This document shows positions 50,187 to 64,000 of a stretch of DNA of 64,000 nt, piece after piece (position 1 is the stretch's first letter; each line of letters begins with the position of its first letter). This stretch comes from Chitinophagaceae bacterium (GTDB lineage: Bacteria > Bacteroidota > Bacteroidia > Chitinophagales > Chitinophagaceae): positions 1-64,000 of the forward strand of contig JANWIJ010000042.1 in the NCBI GenBank assembly GCA_025449935.1, written 5' to 3'. The translations under genes were made by a program, and so were the position numbers. The notes beneath the pieces are model-generated. The model saw nothing but the letters and a program-made list of their open reading frames with translations, did no database searches and was not told the DNA's origin.

Positions 50187-52433
50187 TTATCGTCTTGATT
50201 TAACCGGCAATTTGATCAGGTTCCAGTTGGAGGCTGATTTCGTGAATCCTCTTGTACCTCCTTCGTTACCCATATTCAGCAGGTTGCCAAGCGGGCTGCC
50301 ACCCCGCGGGGTTCCGGCTCTCACTCCTTCCTGGTTAAACACCGCGGCATAATTGGGAATGGGCTCATCGGATGCGATCAGGAAATAATTGTCCGTTCCT
50401 ACCGGATCGGAAACCTCACCCTCGAACAACAGCACATCGCGGACAAGCTCTTTTTTACTGTCAAGCTTGGGGAACTGGTTGTTCACGTTGCCACCCTCGC
50501 TGTCGGGGTAACCAAGAACCATATTGCCATTTTTATCGATCATAAAAACATAAATATATCTTTTGGCGGCACTGGCACCCGTGTTTCCACTATCAGCCAC
50601 CAGGTGGAAGGCAATATTATCACCCAACCGGTACTCATGGTTGGTAATAGGCTTTTGTGTTGATTTATCGATAAGCTCAAGGCGGAAAGGAAAATTGCTG
50701 GTGCCTTCCTTAGGCGGGCTAAGTTGTAGCCAGCCCCTGATCTTTGACAGGCGCATGGCATATTCATAAATACTGTCGGCAATTGACTTGTTGGCCGCAC
50801 TCATATTGGTTTCAAGAGCGAACGTTTTTGTTTGAACCGGCATGGATTCAAGACTGTCGCGGGCCGAGGTTTGCGCACGGCGTAACCCATAGGACGGTTT
50901 ACCATTTTCATCAACAGTGCCGAAGAGCACGTAATTGGCGTCGTTGACATCATTAACGATAACCAAACTCTTATTCTGGCCGATTCTTTCTTTTATTGCT
51001 GCAGACAGACTCCTGGAAGTGGGGAGTTCAAAATATAAAGTGGAGTCTTGCTTACTTAATTGAAGAATACTGCCTGAAGTGATCGTGGACGGGGCCGGCT
51101 GATCTTTACCGTCAACATTCACCCGGTATTTTTCTCCATCAAAGAAAACCGTAGTATAGGGGTCTTGCTTTTCCAGGTCGTTAATCCATTTCACTTTTTT
51201 GGAAGCTTTAAGCTCGTTATTGACACCGGCCAGTCTTACCACCTCTTCATACGTCATATTCCCCGAAGGAATATACACTTTCAGCAAAGGTGCATCCGAG
51301 GATACCCAATTGGTAACCTCTACCAGTTCACCGGGTTTCAGATCCTTACTATCGCCTTTTATAACAACGGCAATTGATTTATTCACGCTAACGACTGATT
51401 CAACCTGGAGTTTTACCAGGGTGTCTTTTCCATTAAATTTTACCAGCTCGTTTTCTTTATACAGCCCCAGCGCAAACCCGCCCTGGAGGGTTACCCGGTT
51501 CCTATCAATACCAGTGATGGCAATTAAGGATTTGTCAGGCAGTGTTCCTTTTTCGATGCCGAATAAGGTTTGTTGCTGGCGGAGCGAGCTCCCACCAAGT
51601 ACAGGTTCCTGTTTCTTGCCATTACTTTTTAAAATAGCCCTGATACTGGTAAAAAGATTTATCGCAGACGCGTTGACTGACTGCTGTTGCAAAGCCTGCA
51701 TAAACGCAATGGTAAAAGCTCCGTGTGCGATATTATTTTCATCTCTTTGCTCCTGGGCATATTCATTGTCCTGCGCTGCCGACATGATCAGGAAGGTTCC
51801 CTCGGACCTTGTTTCAGGAATTACCGGCCGGGAGGCATCTTTCGCATCATAGTTGGCATCAGCAATAAACCGGTAGGAACCGGGATCGTTGGGTCCCCGG
51901 GAAAGTGAACCACTGTGGCAGCAATCCATAATGACAGTGAGTTTTACTCCTTTGTCAATAAACTGGTTAAATATCCCTGCCAGTTGTTTATCCCGGAGAT
52001 CTTCCACACCGGGCTTCCATGTATCACTGGGCACCATGGATTCATCAATTTTATCCACCTCGTTTGACAGGCTGTTCGGAACCCGGCTTCCATGCCCTGC
52101 ATAATATATAAAGGCGATATCGTTGGGTTCAGATTTTTTGAGCAATGCCAGCATTTGCTGTTCGATGGCCACCCGGGTGGCTGCATCATTATACAGGGTA
52201 TCTATTTTGCTGGCGTTAAACTGGAAGCGGGAAGAAATGATAGACTGCATTGACCTGGCATCATTGATACAGCCATCAAGGTCACGGAACACCGAACGGG
52301 CCGTACCCGCTATTTTGGTACCCGGAGGGGGAGTATACTTGTCAATGGCTATCAATAAAGCTCTTTTTTCCTGCGCGGCAACTGACAGGGTAATCATCAG
52401 TAAAATGAGTGCGGTGGTAAGTTGTTTTGGCAT
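50187..52433 (-). CDS. Exported caspase-family (C14) protein with DUF4384-like C-terminus
   Basis: Signal peptide; IAFIYYAGHGSRVP (His) and VIMDCCHSGSLS (Cys); C-terminal RLGDNIAFHLVADSG...YIYVFMIDKNGNMVLGYPD. Confidence 0.9.
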   Translation of the reverse strand: MPKQLTTALILLMITLSVAAQEKRALLIAIDKYTPPPGTKIAGTARSVFRDLDGCINDARSMQSIISSRFQFNASKIDTLYNDAATRVAIEQQMLALLKKSEPNDIAFIYYAGHGSRVPNSLSNEVDKIDESMVPSDTWKPGVEDLRDKQLAGIFNQFIDKGVKLTVIMDCCHSGSLSRGPNDPGSYRFIADANYDAKDASRPVIPETRSEGTFLIMSAAQDNEYAQEQRDENNIAHGAFTIAFMQALQQQSVNASAINLFTSIRAILKSNGKKQEPVLGGSSLRQQQTLFGIEKGTLPDKSLIAITGIDRNRVTLQGGFALGLYKENELVKFNGKDTLVKLQVESVVSVNKSIAVVIKGDSKDLKPGELVEVTNWVSSDAPLLKVYIPSGNMTYEEVVRLAGVNNELKASKKVKWINDLEKQDPYTTVFFDGEKYRVNVDGKDQPAPSTITSGSILQLSKQDSTLYFELPTSRSLSAAIKERIGQNKSLVIVNDVNDANYVLFGTVDENGKPSYGLRRAQTSARDSLESMPVQTKTFALETNMSAANKSIADSIYEYAMRLSKIRGWLQLSPPKEGTSNFPFRLELIDKSTQKPITNHEYRLGDNIAFHLVADSGNTGASAAKRYIYVFMIDKNGNMVLGYPDSEGGNVNNQFPKLDSKKELVRDVLLFEGEVSDPVGTDNYFLIASDEPIPNYAAVFNQEGVRAGTPRGGSPLGNLLNMGNEGGTRGFTKSASNWNLIKLPVKSRR

Positions 52434-52736
52434 GCTATCGGGCTTTTAAAAATTTGTATTGGGTTGTGAATGTGGGCTCATGAATGTCATCATACGGGAG
52501 TTCCGTGTCGGGTTCAGTTGAATGGCACTAATATAAACTGATTTTTGAAACAAAGAAGAATTTAATCTGTTTATTAACCGTTCAGATTGCGTGGCCGGCA
52601 AAAAGGTTGTACTCCGGGTTAAATATAATTGAACAAAAATTTTCATATGATAACAATATTAAACCACGCAACTGTGCCGGCCTATACCTGCTGGCAGGTA
52701 TTTTTGAGCATTCGGTCAAAGCCCTGGTTGGTTCTG

Positions 52737-53921
52737 TTAGGGGGTAAGCCCGTAAGTATCCGCTAATATTTTTTTGTATTCAGCGGGAAGCTGTGGATGC
52801 CGGTAGGCTTTTTCAGCAACGGTTTTTGCAGCTGTTTCATTTCCAAGGTTGATCTCGCAAACCAGTTGCATCAGGTAAAGCCAGTATTCTTTATCCTTAT
52901 CAAGGGGCCGGAATTTGAACAGCTTTAGTTGTGCGTTTATTGCCTGGTAATTTTCTTTTTCAAAGCTGGAAGAATAATCCAGCAGCCAACCGGCTATATC
53001 ATCAATACCCAGCGGCTGTTTAACATCCTTCAGGTATTGAATCAATAAAGCTGTTGCTTTTACATTGTCTTTATCTGCTTGTATGGCAATCCTGAATTGG
53101 AGGTCCTTGACCGCATAATTCTCTTTTTCGGGGCTGAATTTCCGGATCCCGAGCCGGAAAGAGTCAATATTATTATTGGTTCTTTCGTAGATTATTGCTG
53201 CCCGGCTAAACAGTAAATTATATAATACCGAGGTCGTTTTCTCTTTATCCCAGCCCAGCAACTTTTCTATTTTTGCCTTGTTTTGATGAAGATAGCTGAA
53301 TTGTTTATCGGTCAGTTCACTGGTATACATCAATACGGTCGCAGCAATGTCTCTATTACCCAATATATCGGGTTTCAGGGCCAGCCAGGATGCAATGATT
53401 GGTTCTTTATCCGGGTCCTCCAGTTGATCGGCCATGGATGCCCAATTCACAAAATCAGCATCGGTTAAAAGCTGTTTGCGGGCCTTTTCTTTAAGCGTGA
53501 AATATTGCATGGCCGGGTTTTTCGCATTTTTCCCAAGCTCTATGAATTGCGGCGCTTCCATGGCGCCGATGGATTTATGAACGAGGTTGCCCTCGGCAGA
53601 AAAGAATAATAATGTAGGATAAGATGTTACGTCAAATTCTTCAGACAGTTTAACTCCTTCACCCTCTTCCATATCAAATTTTACATTGATGTAATTGGCG
53701 TTAAAATAGGTGGCTACAGCTTCATCAGTATAAACCGAGTTTTCAAGGTATTTACAGGGACCGCACCAGCTGGTGTATGCGTCAAAGAAAATCATCTTGT
53801 TCTCCTTTTTGGCTTTTTCTTTGACCTGCTTCCAGGTTAGATTGCTGACAAAATTGATTTCAGCCGCGAAAGTGAGGATACTGAGCAGGAGGGCGGGTAC
53901 AAGGCCAGTTAGTTTCTTCAT
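52737..53921 (-). CDS. Exported thioredoxin-fold protein
   Basis: Signal peptide; MIFFDAYTSWCGPCKYLENSVYTDEAVATYFNANYINVKFD (WCGPC). Confidence 0.9.
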   Translation of the reverse strand: MKKLTGLVPALLLSILTFAAEINFVSNLTWKQVKEKAKKENKMIFFDAYTSWCGPCKYLENSVYTDEAVATYFNANYINVKFDMEEGEGVKLSEEFDVTSYPTLLFFSAEGNLVHKSIGAMEAPQFIELGKNAKNPAMQYFTLKEKARKQLLTDADFVNWASMADQLEDPDKEPIIASWLALKPDILGNRDIAATVLMYTSELTDKQFSYLHQNKAKIEKLLGWDKEKTTSVLYNLLFSRAAIIYERTNNNIDSFRLGIRKFSPEKENYAVKDLQFRIAIQADKDNVKATALLIQYLKDVKQPLGIDDIAGWLLDYSSSFEKENYQAINAQLKLFKFRPLDKDKEYWLYLMQLVCEINLGNETAAKTVAEKAYRHPQLPAEYKKILADTYGLTP

Positions 53922-54032
53922 GTTCCAGGTTTTTTTGTGGGTTTATTAATAATGACCAGATGCTGCTTCCTCCTACTATACATGGCTGAAGGCTGTTAAT
54001 TAATTCTTAAGCAGGTGCAAGTCATAACAGGA

Positions 54033-57000
54033 CTATTGGTTTAAAAAATCTTCGACATCCGTGCTCCCGTTCTGAATTGCCACTAACAAGGCCGTATTCC
54101 CATTTCGGTCTTTGGCCCGCTTGTCTGCGCCAAACTTTACCAACAATTGGGCGGCGGCCAGGTTATTACTGTAAGCTGCAGCCATAAGCGGGGTGAACAT
54201 ACCTGCTGACTCATTTGTGTAATTGATATTAACGCCGTTATTAACAAGCCATTCAAGGCTTTGCTGCTTTTTCTGAAAAATGGCCACAAAAACTGCACTA
54301 ATGCCTTCTCCATAGTGCCAGTAATCAAGGTCCAGTTTTTCTGCTTTATAAATTGAATCAGCGGATAATACGTTCCCGGAAGCCAGGAAACGCATCATCT
54401 CATAATGAATGCTTTCCCGTTGTTTTACTTTTTTAAAATCCGCCAGCATGGACAAAATAAAAGGGGTGGAGCGCAGCTTCAGTGTATCCATGTGCCAGGA
54501 CAGATCAACCTGTTCTTTCACCACGGCGCCCTTATCCAGCAAATAATAGACGATTTTTTCATGCCGGTTAATAGCGGCAAGGTATAAACAGCTGAATGGA
54601 AATTCTGATTTCAGGCTCATATCGGCCTTTTTCTCCAGGAGGTACTTTACGGCGGTAAAAGCGCCTTGCCGGCAGGCATAATGCAGGGCGGTGAAACCCC
54701 GTTCATCTTTTTTATTCACCGGAATTTTTTCCTGTTCAAGGCAAATTTTCAGTGTGGGAAGATGGTTGTTTTGTGCGGCCCAAAGGAATGCAGCAAAATA
54801 GGAATCACCGGATGAGAGCATGGCAATATCCTGGTATAAATTAGCCTGCCGGAATGAGGGTTGCTGCCTTCCTTTTGAAAGTCTTTTCACCATGGATGAT
54901 ACATAGTGCTGGAGTTCGCTGATAGAAAGAATGCTGTCCTTATCAAGATCGGCATCACCTGATTTGAAAGCCGTAAGCAGGCTATAGGTAAATAACCCAT
55001 TTTTTAAACTATCCGTTTCGAAGGCATATTCATTACCTGCGGAAGCGGCCATGATGTCTACGCCGTTGCCCTGGTTAAAATGATTGAATGCGAAATTAAC
55101 TATGGAAGAACGCTGTGATTTATTTTTTACCTTAAATCCCCTTGCCACGACGGCGCTCGTATCATCGCCCATGGTCTCTTCATAGATCATCGCCTCATCA
55201 TCCGACAGCCCGCTGTTGCAGGCATCAATCATCATTATCTTTTTCCGGGCCGGGCTTGCCGCTACGGCATTATTTAAATCATCGATGTTGAGTCCTGTCG
55301 CAGCTGGATTGCCGGCTTCCCAATTATATGAAGACAAATAATAACTCCCTGATGCAGTATCCAGCATGCCATGTCCTGCATAATAAACAATCACCTGGTC
55401 CCTGGCCCTTGCTTTTTGGAGAAAGAGGCGAACACTGTCAATCGTCCTTGCTGATACCCGCTCGTTGGAACTTGTATAGGCATGGACATTTTCAAAGCTG
55501 GAAGTTGTTTTGAAATATTTGTAAATATCCAGCATGTCTTTCGCGGCGTAACGGAGATTATTCCGGGGGTCATTATATTGTGAAAGCCCGATTCCAACAA
55601 AATAAAGGTCCTTCTTCTTTTCGGGCATGGCATTCACATAAACATAATCACCGGGTGTTTCTTTTCCATCTTTGTCAGTAAGACAAACGCGGATATGATT
55701 ACCGGCATCCACGAGACTTATTTCAGCAGTGAAGATTTTATTGCTATTAAATATTGCGGCTGGTTTTCCGGGCGTGGGCCATAAGGCTGTCCCGTTTACA
55801 TAGATCATCAGGCCCTGGACACCGGTTGCCGGGCCTTCCAGGGATATTGACAGGTTGACGCTTTGTTTTGAAAAATAAGGAACATTGTTCTTCCCGCTAA
55901 TAACCACATCAGCTGCGATGTCAGCGATTGAAAATCGCCTGGCCCTTTTTCCCGTCATATTGCTGATAGCGTTGATAACCTTGCTGTCGGCATAACCGAA
56001 AGCATCCAATACTTTGTCGGGACGATGAAATTTCGCATCCATCTGGAATGCCGGGTATTCTTTATCCTGTTCGGTCCAGGAAAGCATGTTGTAATATTTA
56101 TTCTCGCCCATATAATTCCCGTCGGGCAGCAGAACAAGGTAGCTGGGTTGCAGTTCTCCCAATTCGTTGTAAGTTCCCCGGTTGGCATCTAAAACAATTT
56201 CAGCCAGCTGCCTGCTTTTGCCGGCATCCCATACTTTTATCTTTTCATCGCGGCCAAGTGTATATACCAGTGAGCTATGGGGATCTGCGGTTATTTTTTC
56301 AATACCCGACTGCGAACCCGCAACAGCCATTTTTTTCACGGAATTATCCCAGGTGACAAGCTCATCCTCCTTTGTATAATATTCCATGATAAAACTGATA
56401 TATCGTTTATCAGGACTTACAACAAACCTGTCGGCGAAGGAATAACCTTCCGGGAAAGGGGTAACCTGGGTACTGTCAGCCAACTGAAAAATACCATGAC
56501 CGGTGACAAACTGTTTGCCGCCGGGCAGTACAAGGAGATCTCTTACCCGCCATTTACGCAATATTTTTTTTTCATCCAGCTTTATGATATGGATCAGTTT
56601 GGTTAAGCTGGTGGTTTGAGATTCCCAGTAGATGGTGAGTATGGAAGAGCTGCTGTCAAAACTGAATGCATCATACTTCCAGGACTGTTGAACAGGGTTT
56701 CCCTCATCATCTGTTAGCTTAATTGTGTGGAGGAGCAGTTGTTTGATATCATACCATTGCATTTCCCCTTTTTGTTTATTTAAAGCTGCCAGCGCATTCG
56801 GGAGGTGAATCCTGCAGCTGTCCGTTCCCGGGATATTCATCCGGAGATCAGTTCCCTTTTGCCATAAACCTGCCGGGGTATATGCCCGTCTGGCGGGACT
56901 ATATAATTTTTTTGTAGCGGCAAGGGGTTTATAATCTTTGCTTCCCAGGAACCGGGCGGTATTGATGTGATAGTCCTTCCGCAAGCCAACCGGTTCCATT

Positions 57001-58241
57001 TTACCGTTTGACAGGTCAAGAAATACGCCGTCGGAGAAATGACTGTTGACCTGCACCAGCAATTTACCCGGCTCGTCCGTCAGGTAAAAATTATCAATGG
57101 AAATGTTTTTGCGGGTGAGGCTGAAAAGATGCCCGGTATTCCGGAGCACTATATCTGCCCTGTCCTGTTGTGAATCTTCAATGAATGCGAAACAGCCCGT
57201 CGCAGGGCAATAGGCAAAATCGATTGCCACCTCTTTATACAAATCCCGGAAAGCCGCCGGTTCCGAAGTCAATAACGGGTAACTGATGGTTCCCTTGTTG
57301 ATTTTGGCAACATAATAAATACGATTCCTTATTTCTGTGGCGGATTGCTGCCGCCTGGTATTGGTCAGCCACACAGCTCCCGCCTCGTCCAGGACAAATG
57401 AATGATTTAACCGCATACGTGAAGCAAACTGGTAATCCTGTTCGCCCAGTGCAAAAAAATCTTTCACGGAAACCTTATCCAGCAGCTTCATCCCGCGTAT
57501 GTCAAACCATTGCAGGTAACCGGACAATAACACCAGGGTATCATTCCGGAATTGCATATTGGCAAAGAGGTCGCCTTCTTCAGGGACGGACAGCATCTTT
57601 TCAAAACGATCCCCTTTTTGTTTTAGAACAGCACGGGAAGTGGCCACCCATATTTCGCCATTGATGGTTTGAATGGCATTCACAGTTTCATGATCAATAC
57701 CGCGTATATGCTGCAATATTTTTCCTTCGGCAGAAAATTCTACGATCTGTTGCGGCATGGCAGTTGAAAATTCTCCCTCGTTATAGCATAGCCGGAGTTT
57801 CCGGGTACTAAAATCAATGTCAACCAGCGGGTAATATCCGAAACGTGGCATACTGAGTTCAGGAGACCTGATAGTTTTCGGTATGGGTGTGGAATGCACT
57901 ACCGACCCGGAAGGAAATTGTCTTTTTTGCAGGTAAAGGCTGTCTTTAGTTTCTGTGAGGGTATAAAAAAATGGCGCTGATGGATCGGCGATTAATAAGT
58001 CCGGTATAATTCCCGGGATTTTAGCAACAGGTATTCTTTTTTTCAGATCCGAGATAACAGCTGCATGGTCATCACCGGTGGTAACCAGGTACTGGCCGTC
58101 CGCGGAAAAGACAGTTTTTTTTATATCAAAATTTTCGTGCCAGGGAAGCAGGACAGGTTTTACGCCCGGTTGCTGGGCCTTTCCAGCAGAATAAAAAAAG
58201 CAAAGTATCAGAAAGAGGGCCGGATTAAAGCATCTTTTCAT
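54033..58241 (-). CDS. Exported multidomain caspase-family protein: beta-propeller-like N-terminus, caspase domain, ankyrin repeats
   Basis: Signal peptide; KKDLYFVGIGLSQYNDPRNNLRYAAKD; VIVYYAGHGMLD (His); IMMIDACNSGLSD (Cys); ankyrin GFTALHYACRQGAFTAVKYLLEKKAD, NGNTALLVAIQNGSTD. Confidence 0.9.
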   Translation of the reverse strand: MKRCFNPALFLILCFFYSAGKAQQPGVKPVLLPWHENFDIKKTVFSADGQYLVTTGDDHAAVISDLKKRIPVAKIPGIIPDLLIADPSAPFFYTLTETKDSLYLQKRQFPSGSVVHSTPIPKTIRSPELSMPRFGYYPLVDIDFSTRKLRLCYNEGEFSTAMPQQIVEFSAEGKILQHIRGIDHETVNAIQTINGEIWVATSRAVLKQKGDRFEKMLSVPEEGDLFANMQFRNDTLVLLSGYLQWFDIRGMKLLDKVSVKDFFALGEQDYQFASRMRLNHSFVLDEAGAVWLTNTRRQQSATEIRNRIYYVAKINKGTISYPLLTSEPAAFRDLYKEVAIDFAYCPATGCFAFIEDSQQDRADIVLRNTGHLFSLTRKNISIDNFYLTDEPGKLLVQVNSHFSDGVFLDLSNGKMEPVGLRKDYHINTARFLGSKDYKPLAATKKLYSPARRAYTPAGLWQKGTDLRMNIPGTDSCRIHLPNALAALNKQKGEMQWYDIKQLLLHTIKLTDDEGNPVQQSWKYDAFSFDSSSSILTIYWESQTTSLTKLIHIIKLDEKKILRKWRVRDLLVLPGGKQFVTGHGIFQLADSTQVTPFPEGYSFADRFVVSPDKRYISFIMEYYTKEDELVTWDNSVKKMAVAGSQSGIEKITADPHSSLVYTLGRDEKIKVWDAGKSRQLAEIVLDANRGTYNELGELQPSYLVLLPDGNYMGENKYYNMLSWTEQDKEYPAFQMDAKFHRPDKVLDAFGYADSKVINAISNMTGKRARRFSIADIAADVVISGKNNVPYFSKQSVNLSISLEGPATGVQGLMIYVNGTALWPTPGKPAAIFNSNKIFTAEISLVDAGNHIRVCLTDKDGKETPGDYVYVNAMPEKKKDLYFVGIGLSQYNDPRNNLRYAAKDMLDIYKYFKTTSSFENVHAYTSSNERVSARTIDSVRLFLQKARARDQVIVYYAGHGMLDTASGSYYLSSYNWEAGNPAATGLNIDDLNNAVAASPARKKIMMIDACNSGLSDDEAMIYEETMGDDTSAVVARGFKVKNKSQRSSIVNFAFNHFNQGNGVDIMAASAGNEYAFETDSLKNGLFTYSLLTAFKSGDADLDKDSILSISELQHYVSSMVKRLSKGRQQPSFRQANLYQDIAMLSSGDSYFAAFLWAAQNNHLPTLKICLEQEKIPVNKKDERGFTALHYACRQGAFTAVKYLLEKKADMSLKSEFPFSCLYLAAINRHEKIVYYLLDKGAVVKEQVDLSWHMDTLKLRSTPFILSMLADFKKVKQRESIHYEMMRFLASGNVLSADSIYKAEKLDLDYWHYGEGISAVFVAIFQKKQQSLEWLVNNGVNINYTNESAGMFTPLMAAAYSNNLAAAQLLVKFGADKRAKDRNGNTALLVAIQNGSTDVEDFLNQ

Positions 58242-58433
58242 AGCTTAAAAATAGGGATAATAATTCTTGCCGGATCCTGGCGTCCGTAACAGGCATCCAG
58301 CAGGAGGCAGCGGGAACGTATTTGGTTGCCCGGAAGAACAGGAATACTCAATATTAGGTATTGGAGCAAATAGTGACATCGGTAAATTGCTGATCCAAAA
58401 AGATCATATTTTCAAAACCTAAATTTTAATCAT

Positions 58434-58844
58434 ATGAACAAGATCAAAATGTTGTTCTTCTTCCTGATGCTAACGGCTACCGTGGCATACGGGCAAAACG
58501 ACAACGAAAAGAAAGTGACCAAAATTGAAAAGGGGGCAGTATTAACTGATGCTGACCTGGGGTTTTTAAGTATGGTGACCAATGCCGAACTGGCGGGTAA
58601 CCGCAGTGCTGCCAAAATCGAAGCCACTGTTGACGGGAAAACCTATACGGTAGGCCAAACGCTCACAAAAGCTGACGCTAAAGCTATTAATAATGCCATC
58701 AAGGAATACCAGAAAGCGAATCCCGGGGAGAAAAATCCGACAAGGAATACAGAGAGTGCCCGTGGCGGTCTTTGCTACTACTGGTATTGGTATTGCGATG
58801 GCTATGGAAACTGCTGGTGGTATAAGTACTGGTACTACTGTTAA
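58434..58844 (+). CDS. Small secreted protein with aromatic/Cys-rich C-terminus
   Basis: Signal peptide MNKIKMLFFFLMLTATVAYGQ; ends ARGGLCYYWYWYCDGYGNCWWYKYWYYC; followed by a terminator. Confidence 0.8.
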   Translation: MNKIKMLFFFLMLTATVAYGQNDNEKKVTKIEKGAVLTDADLGFLSMVTNAELAGNRSAAKIEATVDGKTYTVGQTLTKADAKAINNAIKEYQKANPGEKNPTRNTESARGGLCYYWYWYCDGYGNCWWYKYWYYC

Positions 58845-58865
58845 CAGGCCATTCTTAAAAGATTG

Positions 58866-58891
58866 AACCGGTTCCATGAGCCGGTTTTTTT
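58866..58891 (+). terminator. Rho-independent terminator
   Basis: AACCGG-TTCCATGAG-CCGGTT plus T run. Confidence 0.75.
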
Positions 58892-58913
58892 ATGCAGCAG
58901 ACTATGCACTTTC

Positions 58914-61361
58914 TTATTTGTCGGGGAAATATTTTTTCAGCAGGGCTTTAAATGCCGGCATGTTCCGTACAGGTTCCAGGTCCGCATCATACTTCAGGGT
59001 AAAATAATTTCCGTATCCCAGTTTCAACGCTTTTTCAAGACTTTCCAGGGCAGCATTGTTATCCTGTGCCATGGCTTTATAACAAGCATGATGATACCAG
59101 GTCAGCGCTTCATGCTGTTTGTAATTGAAAAGAAGATCCAGGAGAAAATTGGTGTTTTCTGTATTGACCAGCATACCCGGTGTGCGGAGGTAGGCATAAA
59201 ATATCGACAGGTAGGAGAGATACTGCATATTGAATGTATGCGACTTGCTTTTAAATTCAGCAATTTCCTTTTCATCCGTAGCGGTGTAGGTTTTTCCAAA
59301 ATACAGCTGCAGGTTCGTCACAAAACCTTCGGTAAACGTGGGTGCATACTGGACGGTTTTAATAAACCGGGCCATGGCATCCTTCACACTGTCTTCCCTT
59401 AATTCTACTGTCGCCAGGTTGAAATTGGCAAAGGGTTCAGTGCTGTCTGCAGCCAGTACCAGCCGGAAATATTTTTTGGCTGAATCAGGCTGGTTGTTCA
59501 CGAAATAGATATGACCGATATTATTATCGCAGATACTGCAGATGCCGCTATTATTCTTTTTGGCCAGGTTGTAATAATGGATGGCACTGTCGAGGTTATT
59601 ATTTTTTGAATAATAAATGCCTTTAAAGAAATAACCGTTTGATTTATCCTGGGGAGAATTAATCAGTTCATCAATGATGGCGAGGGCTTTGGAAGTTTTA
59701 TCGTTAAACATGTAAGCATTGGACAGTTGAATTTTTAAATCCGTTACGGCCGGGTATTCTTTTACCAGTCCCTCGTAAATACTTTCCGCCTTGTCAAACC
59801 GTTTCAGGTTTACATAGATGGCCCCGAGCGTATATTTTGCATAATAATCATTGGGGCGCAGGTCCAGGTATTTCTGGAACACTTTATTGGCCTTGTCAAA
59901 CTCGTACACAAAATTGTAGTTGACCCCGAGTGCCGACAGGGTATAGGCGGCATTGGGTTCCAGTTTTTCTGATTGCTCAAGCAGGTCGATGGATTTTAAT
60001 ACGGTGGGTTTATAACCAATATTGTATTCCGTTTCAGACAATGCCCAGGTAAGCGCCATCGCATCCATGAATAATTTGCGGGCTTTGAGATTGGTGAACA
60101 TGTAGTGCTGTTCTCCCAGCAGTTTGAGGCAGCTGTCCAGTTCAGCGGCGGCATAATAGCATTCGTCACGGGTAGAATAACTTGTTTCTCCCTTCAATAA
60201 TGGGCTCACGATGCCATTGAACCGTTCATTCAGCGCTGCCGCGAGGTTCCTTCGCATAACGGGTGTAAGCGGGTTGTCGGCATACCTTTTTACAAACAGT
60301 TTATAATCCCGGAGTGCATTGGTGTCGGTTGGCCAGATAAGCTTCCTGGCTTCCACATTGTCTTTAAAGGACGCGTATATCTTTTTTCCCGGTTCATCCA
60401 GCGAGTCTGTGTATTTTTCTTCATTGCCCTTTGTGTTGGCTACTGCCAGCATGGGATAGTTCTCTGCTTTTTGTTTTTTTAATGCCGCCAATACGGCCGG
60501 GTTCACCGAAGCAATTGCTTTGCTCAGGTCGCCACTGATCAGCGGGATTTGCTTGCCTTCGCTGTATTTTGCCACATTGGACTGGATATAACTCTGCAAT
60601 TCAAACATGCTGACGATGCCGTTATTATCCATATCGGCCAGTCCTTTTATTCCTTCTTCCAGTTGCAACGAGAATAAACCCCGGCCACCGCCCCATTCCG
60701 CACTTTCAAGTGATAACTGGTTGGGCTGGCAGGAAAGTATCTTATATTCTTTGCCCCAGGCGGAGGCAAGGGCAGAAGCCGTCTGCTGAACACCTTCCAC
60801 GCCACCTTTCAGGTTACCGGAGTGGCAGGCATCCACGATAAATATCATCTCAATTCCCTTTTGGGCCAGTGGCGACAGGTAGCGTTTCAGATCCAGAATT
60901 TCGAGCACATCATCGTTCATGCCGAAATAATTTCCATTGGGGCTGTTGTACAGCAATAAAAGACCGTTTTCGATTTGCGTCAGGTCTTCCATATCACCAT
61001 GTCCCGCGAAAAAGAAGTAGATCCGGTCCCCGGGTTTGGCTTTCCTGGCGAGCACCGAGATGGCGTCGCCGACATTGGTGCGGGTGGCATGCTCATTTAA
61101 AAATGTTTCAATACTGGTCGCAGGAATTTTACCGCCTGCTTCGCTCAGTAAAAAACGTTCAAATGCCTGCGCATCCTTATCAGCATATTGGAGATCAGGC
61201 ACTACTTTATAATTGCTGATCCCGACGATGATCGCATAGGTATTTCCTGTTACCACCGAAGAATCCTGCTTTTTTTTCAGCCCGCGCTCATCCGGTTGGG
61301 CAGCAAGCTGCAGGGTGATACCCGCAAATAACAGTAATATGCAAAAACTTCGTAATGCCAC
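58914..61361 (-). CDS. Exported caspase-family protein with TPR repeats
   Basis: Signal peptide; TYAIIVGISNYKVVPDLQYADKDAQAF; IYFFFAGHGDMED (His); MIFIVDACHSGNLKGG (Cys); TPR-like repeats (NPYDYYAKYTLGAIYVNLKRFDKAESIYEGLVK-type region). Confidence 0.9.
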   Translation of the reverse strand: MALRSFCILLLFAGITLQLAAQPDERGLKKKQDSSVVTGNTYAIIVGISNYKVVPDLQYADKDAQAFERFLLSEAGGKIPATSIETFLNEHATRTNVGDAISVLARKAKPGDRIYFFFAGHGDMEDLTQIENGLLLLYNSPNGNYFGMNDDVLEILDLKRYLSPLAQKGIEMIFIVDACHSGNLKGGVEGVQQTASALASAWGKEYKILSCQPNQLSLESAEWGGGRGLFSLQLEEGIKGLADMDNNGIVSMFELQSYIQSNVAKYSEGKQIPLISGDLSKAIASVNPAVLAALKKQKAENYPMLAVANTKGNEEKYTDSLDEPGKKIYASFKDNVEARKLIWPTDTNALRDYKLFVKRYADNPLTPVMRRNLAAALNERFNGIVSPLLKGETSYSTRDECYYAAAELDSCLKLLGEQHYMFTNLKARKLFMDAMALTWALSETEYNIGYKPTVLKSIDLLEQSEKLEPNAAYTLSALGVNYNFVYEFDKANKVFQKYLDLRPNDYYAKYTLGAIYVNLKRFDKAESIYEGLVKEYPAVTDLKIQLSNAYMFNDKTSKALAIIDELINSPQDKSNGYFFKGIYYSKNNNLDSAIHYYNLAKKNNSGICSICDNNIGHIYFVNNQPDSAKKYFRLVLAADSTEPFANFNLATVELREDSVKDAMARFIKTVQYAPTFTEGFVTNLQLYFGKTYTATDEKEIAEFKSKSHTFNMQYLSYLSIFYAYLRTPGMLVNTENTNFLLDLLFNYKQHEALTWYHHACYKAMAQDNNAALESLEKALKLGYGNYFTLKYDADLEPVRNMPAFKALLKKYFPDK

Positions 61362-61482
61362 TTGCCGGAATATTCTTTTGAGAATTAATTTTAAAGGTAA
61401 TAAAGTTTGATTATGAACAACTACCCGCCGGAGGGTATTAAAAACTGCCGTTATAGTTATATCTTTTCAGCAAATCGCGAGC

Positions 61483-63717
61483 ATGCCCGGCCTGCAAAAA
61501 ATAATAATTACCTGTTTATCAGTTTTTGGCTTGCTGTACGGTCCCCGTTCATTCGCTTATACGGGTATAAATGCCGGGACCACAATAGTCCTGGAGCACA
61601 GCCAGTATCCTCCAGCCATAAAAAAATATAATGCAAGTGAAGCATATGTGCTCTATTGGGGTACCGGGTTTGGTGCAAAACAGTTACAGGGGACTATTCT
61701 TCGCAAGGATACCATCATCAATTATAAAAAATTCACGGAATCATTTCCCAATGGGACCGGTTTCCGGCTGGTTTATTCAACGGGAGATAATATTGACAGT
61801 GTTTATCAGCTGGATGCAAAATCCAGGATCACAGCTAAAGCCTATAACCTGGGCAACGGGAAGCTCCATATACTGGCTTTTGATACCCTGATGAAAAAAG
61901 TGGATGAGTTTATCTACAATTATGCTGAAAAAATTGCAGCTATGGCCAACACCCGCGGTAAATCAGCCGGCGGGGAAGGCAGGTCCCTTGAATTGCTGCT
62001 AAGGCAATACGAGATTTACGATTCTTATGACAGGAATAATTATGCCCTGGCTTCTGTGTGGATACTTTCCATTGGTATTGACGACTACGGCCCGGAGCAA
62101 TACGCCACCTGTAAATCCGATGCCCGGTCCTATGCTGAATTTTTCCGGAAACAATATACCCTTGGGCAGAACGCTGACCTTCATGCTTCATTAGTTCATG
62201 AATATGTGTTGCTCGATCAAAATGCTACCCGTGAAGCGATCCTGGATGCGTTGAAAGACATCGCCAGGAAATCTTCGTTGAACGATTATTTTATTTTTAA
62301 TTTCAGTGGGTGCAGCAATGTTCTCAAAAATGACCCGGTAAACAGTGGTACCCACTTTTTCCCTTATGACGTGATTGTTGTCAGCCAGGCTTCAAGCGGG
62401 GCGGGACTTAAGAACAGGGATAGCAGGGATACTTCCGATCCTTATAAGAAAACAATTTCACTAAAAATACTCCAGGAGCATATACAGGCAATTCCCGCCA
62501 ATAACCAGTTGTTTATTTCCGAAGCAGGGCCTTCCGGGAAATTTAAGACGGAGTTTATACGGACCCTGATGCAAAACTCCCCGGAGGTGGCCAGCATCCT
62601 GAACAAGAACAGGATTATCATCGTTCCTAATGGATTTGGCTACGATGGGGTAAGCTGCCTGGGAACTTTCATCGCAAAAGGACCTATCAATTATTATATA
62701 ACCTCCCTGGATTCAGCGAATATCTATGATCTTTTTAAAGAGGAGTCCCGGGCCAGCCCAATCGCTTTTAAGATAAAAAATAAGGCCTGGAACTGCCGGT
62801 CATTTAAAGAGGAGTATTTCGATATTTTTTTCGAAAGAAAATTCCTGAAGGAATACCAGGAAATTTTCGTGGACAGTGAAGGTCAATCCCGGGGACTGAA
62901 GCCCAAAGCAAAGGAACTGAGGGAAGTGGCTAATATATCGGGTAAACAATATGCCCTGGTGGTGGGCACGGATAATTATAAAGGAACGGGTTGGAAAAAA
63001 CTACCCAATGCGATCAATGATGCAAGAGCCGTTCGCGATGAACTGGAGCGGGGTTATGGTTTCGAGGTTCAGTTACTCGAGGACAAACCGCTGGATACGA
63101 TCTATAGAGCGATCGGGGAGTACTACCGTATTTTGCAACCCGGCGATCAGTTTATCCTCTATTTTGCAGGTCATGGAGATATGGAAACCGAGTTCATGGA
63201 TGATGGGTTTATTGTCTGCACCGATTCAAAGTCCCGGGATGATGACCCTACCCGGAATACTTATATACAATATATCAAGCTGCAAAAAATGATTAACAAG
63301 ATACCCGCGCGGCAGATACTTGTAATGCTGGATGTTTGTCATGGCGGTGTTTTCAACCAAAAAAGAAGCGATCCTGTCAGGACCTTGTCCAACAGGAATG
63401 TCCGACAGTTCCTCGCAGATCAGTCGCAATACACCTGCCGGAAATTTTTATCCTCGGTAGGGACCGACGAAGCTTTTGATGGCAAGCCGGGAGAACATTC
63501 GCCCTTTGCCAACCTGTTATTGCAGGTATTGAGAGCCAGGGGAAACACTTCCAACGGCATTGTGACGCTATCGCATATTTTTTCGGTGCTCCAGACAGCC
63601 AGTATGAATGAAACAGCAACGCTGAAAATTTCTCCGCAAAAAGATGGGTTTGGGAAAGATAACCCGGAGAGTGATTTTATACTGATACCTGTACAAAACA
63701 CTGGGGATAAACAATAA
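61483..63717 (+). CDS. Exported tandem caspase-family protein: degenerate N-terminal plus intact C-terminal caspase domain
   Basis: N-terminal domain WILSIGIDDYGPEQYATCKSDARSYAEFF...FIFNFSGCSNV; C-terminal domain YALVVGTDNYKGTGWKKLPNAINDARAVRDEL...FILYFAGHGDME...VMLDVCHGGVF. Confidence 0.88.
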   Translation: MPGLQKIIITCLSVFGLLYGPRSFAYTGINAGTTIVLEHSQYPPAIKKYNASEAYVLYWGTGFGAKQLQGTILRKDTIINYKKFTESFPNGTGFRLVYSTGDNIDSVYQLDAKSRITAKAYNLGNGKLHILAFDTLMKKVDEFIYNYAEKIAAMANTRGKSAGGEGRSLELLLRQYEIYDSYDRNNYALASVWILSIGIDDYGPEQYATCKSDARSYAEFFRKQYTLGQNADLHASLVHEYVLLDQNATREAILDALKDIARKSSLNDYFIFNFSGCSNVLKNDPVNSGTHFFPYDVIVVSQASSGAGLKNRDSRDTSDPYKKTISLKILQEHIQAIPANNQLFISEAGPSGKFKTEFIRTLMQNSPEVASILNKNRIIIVPNGFGYDGVSCLGTFIAKGPINYYITSLDSANIYDLFKEESRASPIAFKIKNKAWNCRSFKEEYFDIFFERKFLKEYQEIFVDSEGQSRGLKPKAKELREVANISGKQYALVVGTDNYKGTGWKKLPNAINDARAVRDELERGYGFEVQLLEDKPLDTIYRAIGEYYRILQPGDQFILYFAGHGDMETEFMDDGFIVCTDSKSRDDDPTRNTYIQYIKLQKMINKIPARQILVMLDVCHGGVFNQKRSDPVRTLSNRNVRQFLADQSQYTCRKFLSSVGTDEAFDGKPGEHSPFANLLLQVLRARGNTSNGIVTLSHIFSVLQTASMNETATLKISPQKDGFGKDNPESDFILIPVQNTGDKQ

Positions 63718-63812
63718 GTACCGGGAAAAAATACCAAATTCCGGGTATTGGAAACAGGTTTCCATGGGGGTATCTTTTCGAAAATTTTCAGCGCATGAAT
63801 ACCCGATAAAAA

Positions 63813-63865
63813 ATAACCCCGGCGTACTCCAAATGGAGTATAGGCGGGATGTAGTAACCGACATA
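63813..63865. repeat. Palindrome-containing element resembling Bacteroidota interspersed repeats
   Basis: TACTCC-AAAT-GGAGTA palindrome (63825-63840) followed by TAGGCGGGATGTAGTAACC. Confidence 0.4.
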
Positions 63866-63965
63866 GATTTACGGGAATTTCAAAAATTCACTAAAAAAAG
63901 CTACCATTATCATAGCAAAGAAGTTTTAATCAAACATCCATTTTAACACGTTAAATCGAACAATT

Positions 63966-64000
63966 ATGAAGAGAATTAAAATGCTATTATCAGCTTCCCT
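63966..64000 (+). CDS. Start of a further putative secreted protein (truncated by window end)
   Basis: ATGAAGAGAATTAAAATGCTATTATCAGCTTCC (MKRIKMLLSAS) resembles the signal-peptide start of the 58434 protein (MNKIKMLFFF). Confidence 0.4.
   Translation, partial: MKRIKMLLSAS

What the first reader, a model, noticed from the sequence alone, without database searches (positions are those of the whole stretch)
58761..58841. Extreme aromatic/cysteine C-terminal peptide GGLCYYWYWYCDGYGNCWWYKYWYYC
The last 26 residues contain 4 Cys and 15 Trp/Tyr, following a charged pro-region and an RGG. This is not typical of a folded enzyme; it resembles a mature secreted peptide (RiPP-like, disulfide-crosslinked toxin, or adhesive/redox-active peptide). 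I do not recognise a family.
Basis: partly seen in the sequence, partly recalled or inferred. Interest (0 to 1): 0.7.

Follow-up and report, generated by a model that had tools for sequence, protein, structure and literature searches.

The report
Secreted precursor of aromatic, cysteine-rich peptide
The odd tyrosine/tryptophan/cysteine tail is real and conserved: it ends a so far unnamed family of exported bacterial proteins that look built to be cut after a fixed arginine, releasing a small disulfide-bonded peptide, and here the gene sits among caspase-like protease genes.

Summary
ORF 58434-58844 (136 aa) ends in a 26-residue tail with 14 Trp/Tyr (not 15) and 4 Cys. A paralogue lies 5.5 kb downstream. 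I found 16 genes in 13 Bacteroidia genomes (4 GTDB families, 5 genera). All share one plan: Sec signal, Cys-free pro-domain, and a tail of 19-27 residues, 54-79% W/Y/C, with 4 or 6 Cys. An invariant Arg sits at the tail boundary and a second in the pro-domain; six members have no other Arg in the exported part. Among close relatives the tail is the most constrained region (pN/pS about 0.1), but its sequence varies between genera. Two distant members were found with a tail-free profile. No Pfam, NCBIfam or PDB relative was found. In five genomes of the own genus the gene sits in a cluster of secreted caspases with a secreted CGPC thioredoxin; elsewhere it stands alone. Best reading: an exported proprotein cut after Arg to free a disulfide-bonded aromatic peptide, in this lineage perhaps by the neighbouring caspases. 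Family, export signal and conservation are shown; cleavage, disulfides, hairpin fold and activity are inferred. No RiPP enzymes were seen nearby and the peptide is not cationic.

The parts
58434..58844 (+). 136-aa precursor gene (stop included)
   Evidence: ORF; paralogue and orthologues
58434..58493 (+). Sec signal peptide MNKIKMLFFFLMLTATVAYG, cut before Gln21 (by eye)
   Evidence: sequence; G-Q or A-Q boundary recurs in the alignment
58494..58763 (+). pro-domain, residues 21-110, no Cys, predicted compact alpha/beta fold
   Evidence: AlphaFold2 block pLDDT up to 94 in its core, fold repeated for a distant member; no fold match in the PDB
58602..58604 (+). Arg57, first invariant [SNH]-R-[GS] site
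   Evidence: in all 15 full-length members; the partial copy reads MSRG there too
58761..58763 (+). Arg110, invariant Arg at the pro-domain/tail boundary; proposed cleavage site
58764..58841 (+). aromatic/Cys tail, proposed mature peptide; predicted beta-hairpin (strands 113-121 and 127-135)
58865..58887 (+). intrinsic terminator directly after the gene
   Evidence: one is present after 15 of 16 members
63966..64000 (+). start of the paralogous precursor gene, which continues to C42:64352 outside the window
   Evidence: 53% identity over residues 1-136
50187..52433 (-). secreted caspase with DUF4384-like C-terminus, 748 aa
52737..53921 (-). secreted thioredoxin-fold protein, 394 aa, CGPC active site
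54033..58241 (-). secreted caspase with WD40-like N-part and ankyrin C-part, 1402 aa
58914..61361 (-). secreted caspase-TPR, 815 aa
61483..63717 (+). secreted caspase, 744 aa, between the two precursor genes

Best explanation
The gene encodes a preproprotein. Step 1 (sequence signal clear): it is exported by a Sec signal peptide. Step 2 (inferred): the small Cys-free pro-domain keeps the aromatic, aggregation-prone tail soluble while its four Cys form disulfides outside the cytoplasm. Step 3 (inferred from invariance): an Arg-specific protease cuts after Arg110 (and perhaps after Arg57), freeing a peptide of about 26 residues. In this lineage the likely proteases are the neighbouring secreted caspases, which carry features of the basic-P1 (C14B) type, and the neighbouring CGPC thioredoxin is the likely disulfide handler; in stand-alone members the enzymes would be encoded elsewhere. 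Step 4 (inferred, weakest): the peptide is a disulfide-locked aromatic hairpin that works at the cell surface by its composition (stacking, self-assembly, or binding membranes or glycans), not as a cationic pore former.
For: 16 genes in 13 genomes keep the plan: export signal, 0 Cys and 1-4% W/Y/C in the pro-domain, then Arg, then a tail with 54-79% W/Y/C and 4 or 6 Cys, always even. Six members (three of them near-identical) have exactly two Arg in the whole exported part, both at the two sites, although Lys is plentiful. G494 and G523 were found with a pro-domain-only profile (A4), so their aromatic tails are independent evidence; with tails removed all 16 score E<=2.3e-17 against that profile, including the six distant ones that did not build it. 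Tail pN/pS about 0.1 against 0.27-0.46 for the other regions. Terminator after 15 of 16 genes. Window tail modelled as a hairpin at block pLDDT 74-87. Five genomes of the own genus (six genes) have the precursor inside a secreted-caspase cluster; every caspase examined there keeps the His-Cys dyad and the Asp of DxC, one of the two acidic residues that seat basic P1 residues in metacaspases (PMC6426788). A full-length orthologue of the cluster's thioredoxin occurs, in 42 genomes of the genus, only in those five.
Against: No cleavage, disulfide or peptide has been observed. Ten of 16 genes are not inside a caspase cluster, so the caspase link is lineage-specific; casp734 and the caspase-TPR also exist in genomes without the precursor. 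The four casp734 genomes that lack both precursor and thioredoxin form one group in the casp734 tree, so the co-occurrence counts as one or two events, not nine. The hairpin is confident for the window member only; for G494 the tail is at pLDDT 36-41, and four of the five models of the window member had mean pLDDT of 62-65.
Confidence: 0.55

Rival explanations
1. The protein is not cut. It is an intact small exported protein whose C-terminal disulfide hairpin is a binding module (for glycan, peptidoglycan or another protein), and the R-G motifs are linker or turn residues.
For: The pro-domain is a folded, conserved domain in its own right; aromatic clusters commonly bind carbohydrate (general knowledge); stand-alone genes have no protease next door.
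Against: Arg, not Lys, is invariant at both sites in 16 genes and is otherwise rare; the tail changes sequence between genera while the Arg boundary does not.
Confidence: 0.22
2. The freed tail is a killing peptide (bacteriocin or two-disulfide beta-hairpin antimicrobial peptide) and proteases release it on demand.
For: Precursor layout like BRICHOS-related antimicrobial peptides (PMC7761999); hairpin model; tails differ between genera.
Against: The window tail has one Asp and one Lys, pI 5.8, whereas known beta-hairpin antimicrobial peptides are cationic (general knowledge); no recurrent immunity-like gene next to the stand-alone copies; tails are nearly identical within most of the own genus.
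Confidence: 0.15
3. The precursor is a regulator of the caspases: a decoy substrate, inhibitor or redox sensor whose Cys/aromatic tail is read by the thioredoxin and whose Arg sites occupy caspase active sites.
For: Two Arg sites fit a substrate-like inhibitor; several caspases plus a thioredoxin in one cluster; the two precursor genes of the own genome lie either side of two caspase genes.
Against: Most members of the family live without neighbouring caspases and keep both Arg sites and the tail.
Confidence: 0.12
4. Ribosomally made, enzymatically modified natural product (RiPP) with cross-linked Tyr/Trp.
For: Leader plus conserved-composition core; Tyr/Trp-rich cores occur among cross-linked RiPPs (general knowledge).
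Against: No candidate modifying enzyme recurs next to the copies; the precursor carries a Sec signal.
Confidence: 0.04

Closest known systems
BRICHOS-domain-related antimicrobial peptides (arenicin, capitellacin, alvinellacin)
   Same: Signal peptide, folded pro-domain thought to shield an aggregation-prone part, basic cleavage site, C-terminal disulfide hairpin of about 20 residues (PMC7761999, PMC13001179)
   Different: Animal proteins; no BRICHOS match here; those peptides are cationic, this one is not; the pro-domain here has no Cys
Arg-gingipain-processed type V pilus subunits (FimA/Mfa1) of Bacteroidia
   Same: Exported precursor of a Bacteroidia species activated outside the cytoplasm by cleavage after Arg (PMC5954841)
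   Different: Those are lipoproteins of pilus fold activated by gingipains; no fimbrillin match here
Secreted metacaspases/orthocaspases (Peptidase C14B) in multi-caspase loci
   Same: The neighbouring enzymes belong to Peptidase C14: His-Cys dyad, DxC; C14B cleaves after basic residues (PMC6426788); multi-metacaspase operons are known in Bacteroidetes (PMC3501461)
   Different: I know of no described partner peptide of this type
Bacterial gasdermin with its neighbouring caspase-like protease
   Same: Works-like comparison only: protease genes beside a substrate that is freed by cleavage (general knowledge)
   Different: Gasdermin is cytoplasmic, larger and loses a short C-terminal inhibitor; no similarity was seen

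Membership tests
RiPP | dedicated modifying enzyme encoded with the precursor | tested here: not met
   no such gene recurs next to the copies; an unlinked enzyme is not excluded
RiPP | modified core residues | not testable with these tools
   needs mass spectrometry
beta-hairpin antimicrobial peptides | about 20 residues, two disulfides, hairpin | tested here: inconclusive
   4 Cys; hairpin modelled for one member only
beta-hairpin antimicrobial peptides | cationic | tested here: not met
   pI 5.8
BRICHOS precursors | BRICHOS domain | tested here: not met
   no BRICHOS match among 11 members in Pfam at E up to 10
Peptidase C14 (neighbouring proteins) | caspase domain with His-Cys dyad | tested here: met
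Peptidase C14B basic-P1 specificity (neighbouring proteins) | acidic S1 residues (Asp two before Cys, and a second Asp upstream) | tested here: met
   first Asp in all 15 caspases listed; second found by pattern in 4 of the 5 own-genome caspases; specificity itself untested
known anti-phage defence proteins | PADLOC model match of the precursor | tested here: not met
   precursor none; neighbouring caspases match generic caspase models

The most novel reading that the evidence does not exclude
A bacterial caspase-released extracytoplasmic peptide: secreted metacaspases cut a dedicated, chaperone-like proprotein after Arg and release a disulfide-locked Tyr/Trp hairpin that acts on the producer's or neighbours' envelope, with a co-inherited thioredoxin folding it. 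It would be, to my knowledge, the first dedicated peptide substrate of secreted bacterial caspases and a new class of bacterial peptide.
Probability: 0.25. Interest if true: 0.85.

Novelty: new variant of a known kind. Interest (0 to 1): 0.62.

Why it matters
The natural substrates of the many secreted caspase homologues of Bacteroidota are, as far as I know, not established. This family offers a concrete candidate substrate with two precisely placed Arg sites that can be tested with purified proteins. It also defines a new family of exported, arginine-bounded aromatic/cysteine peptides in which composition is kept while sequence drifts between genera, a pattern expected of surface-acting or self-assembling peptides.

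Tried and rejected
Chance composition or an out-of-frame ORF: rejected. Phage or plasmid origin: no relative in viral contigs, in the plasmid collection, or (tested with the G494 member) in the phage collection. Known fold: no PDB match with E<=0.001. Internal duplication of the pro-domain, each half ending in R-G: suggestive by eye, weak by hhalign (probability 9.7%, P 0.003) and by shuffling; not claimed. Other aromatic peptides next to the precursor-less casp734 and caspase-TPR genes: none seen in the gene lists. Weak hits at E 1e-3 to 1 (L049-L055; L072) look like chance.

Full report
What is there. The tail is 58764-58841 and 58761 is the codon of Arg110. Such a composition is far outside chance (about 8e-12 per position with the window's own background), and nothing like it occurs elsewhere in the window.

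It is a conserved gene. The same contig holds a paralogue at C42:63966-64352, starting at the very end of the window. Searches of relatives, genus, family, order and class with successive alignments gave 16 genes in 13 genomes: own genus (G000 twice, G028 twice, G030, G035, G037, G039), G176 (two copies, another genus of the same family), G494 and G523 (family f9), G1375 (f85), G1176, G1279 and G1378 (f120). By contig numbers and lengths several of these correspond to named records: IBVUCB2, UBA2789, CAN_BIN39 and Chersky_580 (Chitinophagaceae) and Ga0077558 (Bacteroidia). The family is sparse: 6 of 42 genomes of the genus carry it, plus a relic in G031 where only the end of the tail and what follows it survive.

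Anatomy. All members share the plan: signal peptide; pro-domain with 0 Cys; Arg in [SNH]R[GS] mid-way; Arg just before the tail, followed by Gly or Ala; tail of 19-27 residues with 54-79% W/Y/C and 4 or 6 Cys. Examples of tails after the Arg: GGLCYYWYWYCDGYGNCWWYKYWYYC (window), GACCYWYYYCTYSGYCYYYWRCYC (G028a), GCYYVCWYYYAGYYYYYCC (G494), GSADCYYYCYYDYYGNYVCYWYCD (G523), GAVCYYLYCNSYGNCYYVYYYC (G1375), GDCRYVCYYYLQDSYGYWYYYYYCC (G1279). G494 and G523 were found with a profile that excludes the tail, so their tails confirm the pattern independently; the f120 and f85 members were found with the full profile but also score without their tails. In six members, three of them near-identical, the exported part has exactly two Arg, the two sites, while Lys is frequent. 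Among closer relatives the tail is the most constrained region: pN 0.08 and pS 0.72, against pN 0.18-0.32 elsewhere. An intrinsic terminator follows 15 of 16 genes, so these look like single, expressed genes.

Structure. AlphaFold2 gives the pro-domain a compact alpha/beta fold with high confidence in its core in two distant members, without a PDB match. The window's tail is modelled as a hairpin with strands 113-121 and 127-135 at block pLDDT 74-87, but only in the best of five models is the mean confidence fair (75 against 62-65), and the tail of G494 is not modelled with confidence. The hairpin is therefore a proposal.

Neighbourhood. In the own genome the precursor genes lie in a cluster of five genes for exported caspases with different repeats (DUF4384-like, WD40/ankyrin, TPR, a 744-aa one, WD40) and one for an exported thioredoxin with a CGPC site. 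A similar cluster with one precursor is found in G035, G037, G039 and, rearranged, in G028. All caspases examined keep the His-Cys dyad and the Asp of DxC; four of the five own-genome ones also show the second acidic residue by pattern. In C14B enzymes acidic pocket residues go with cleavage after Arg or Lys (PMC6426788), and the only solved sequence relative of the 744-aa caspase is a metacaspase (4f6o, E 0.004). A full-length orthologue of the thioredoxin occurs only in the five cluster genomes among 42 of the genus. Four sister genomes keep the pair casp734/caspase-DUF4384 with neither precursor nor thioredoxin beside it, but they form one group in the casp734 tree, so this is one or two events. 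Outside the own genus, and in G030, the precursor stands alone among unrelated genes; one G176 copy lies at a contig end. The caspase link is therefore a feature of one lineage, not of the family.

Interpretation. Shown: a conserved family, an export signal, the Arg/tail layout, selection on the tail, the cluster. Inferred: cleavage after Arg, disulfides, the hairpin, activity. The layout is closest to animal BRICHOS-related peptide precursors (PMC7761999, PMC13001179) and to Arg-gingipain activation of Bacteroidia pilus subunits (PMC5954841), with no sequence membership in either. The slightly acidic, aromatic peptide, its conserved composition with drifting sequence, and the absence of an immunity-like neighbour make a surface-acting or self-assembling peptide more likely than a bacteriocin, but this last step is weak. 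No family in Pfam, NCBIfam or PADLOC describes the precursor.

Noticed in passing
L045:10098-10214 (G031:C2): DNA relic of the tail (HYCDWYGYCYWYKYWYYC with stop) behind an unrelated short reading frame: a decayed member of the family.
   Followed up: partly
L043:15303-16544 (G035) and L037:3578-4796 (G039): The thioredoxin gene is split at about the same place (near residue 170) into a thioredoxin part and a C-terminal part.
   Followed up: no
L036:649-1041, L043:19226-19618, L037:491-883: A 131-aa exported protein of unknown family ends the caspase cluster in three genomes; weak relatives lie next to caspases in G028, G032 and G020.
   Followed up: no
L059, L060, L061, L062: The divergent pair casp734/caspase-DUF4384 is kept, in a similar gene neighbourhood, in four genomes without the precursor: a minimal secreted caspase pair whose function is open.
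   Followed up: partly
L034:6131-7886 (G030) and L067:8605-14615 (G020): The precursor in G030 and a caspase pair in G020 both sit beside the 3' end of an mtaB-like gene: possibly one site with different remains of the cluster.
   Followed up: no
G000:C42:50187-69018 (window 50187-64000 and beyond): Five exported caspases with five different repeat architectures in one 19-kb stretch.
   Followed up: partly
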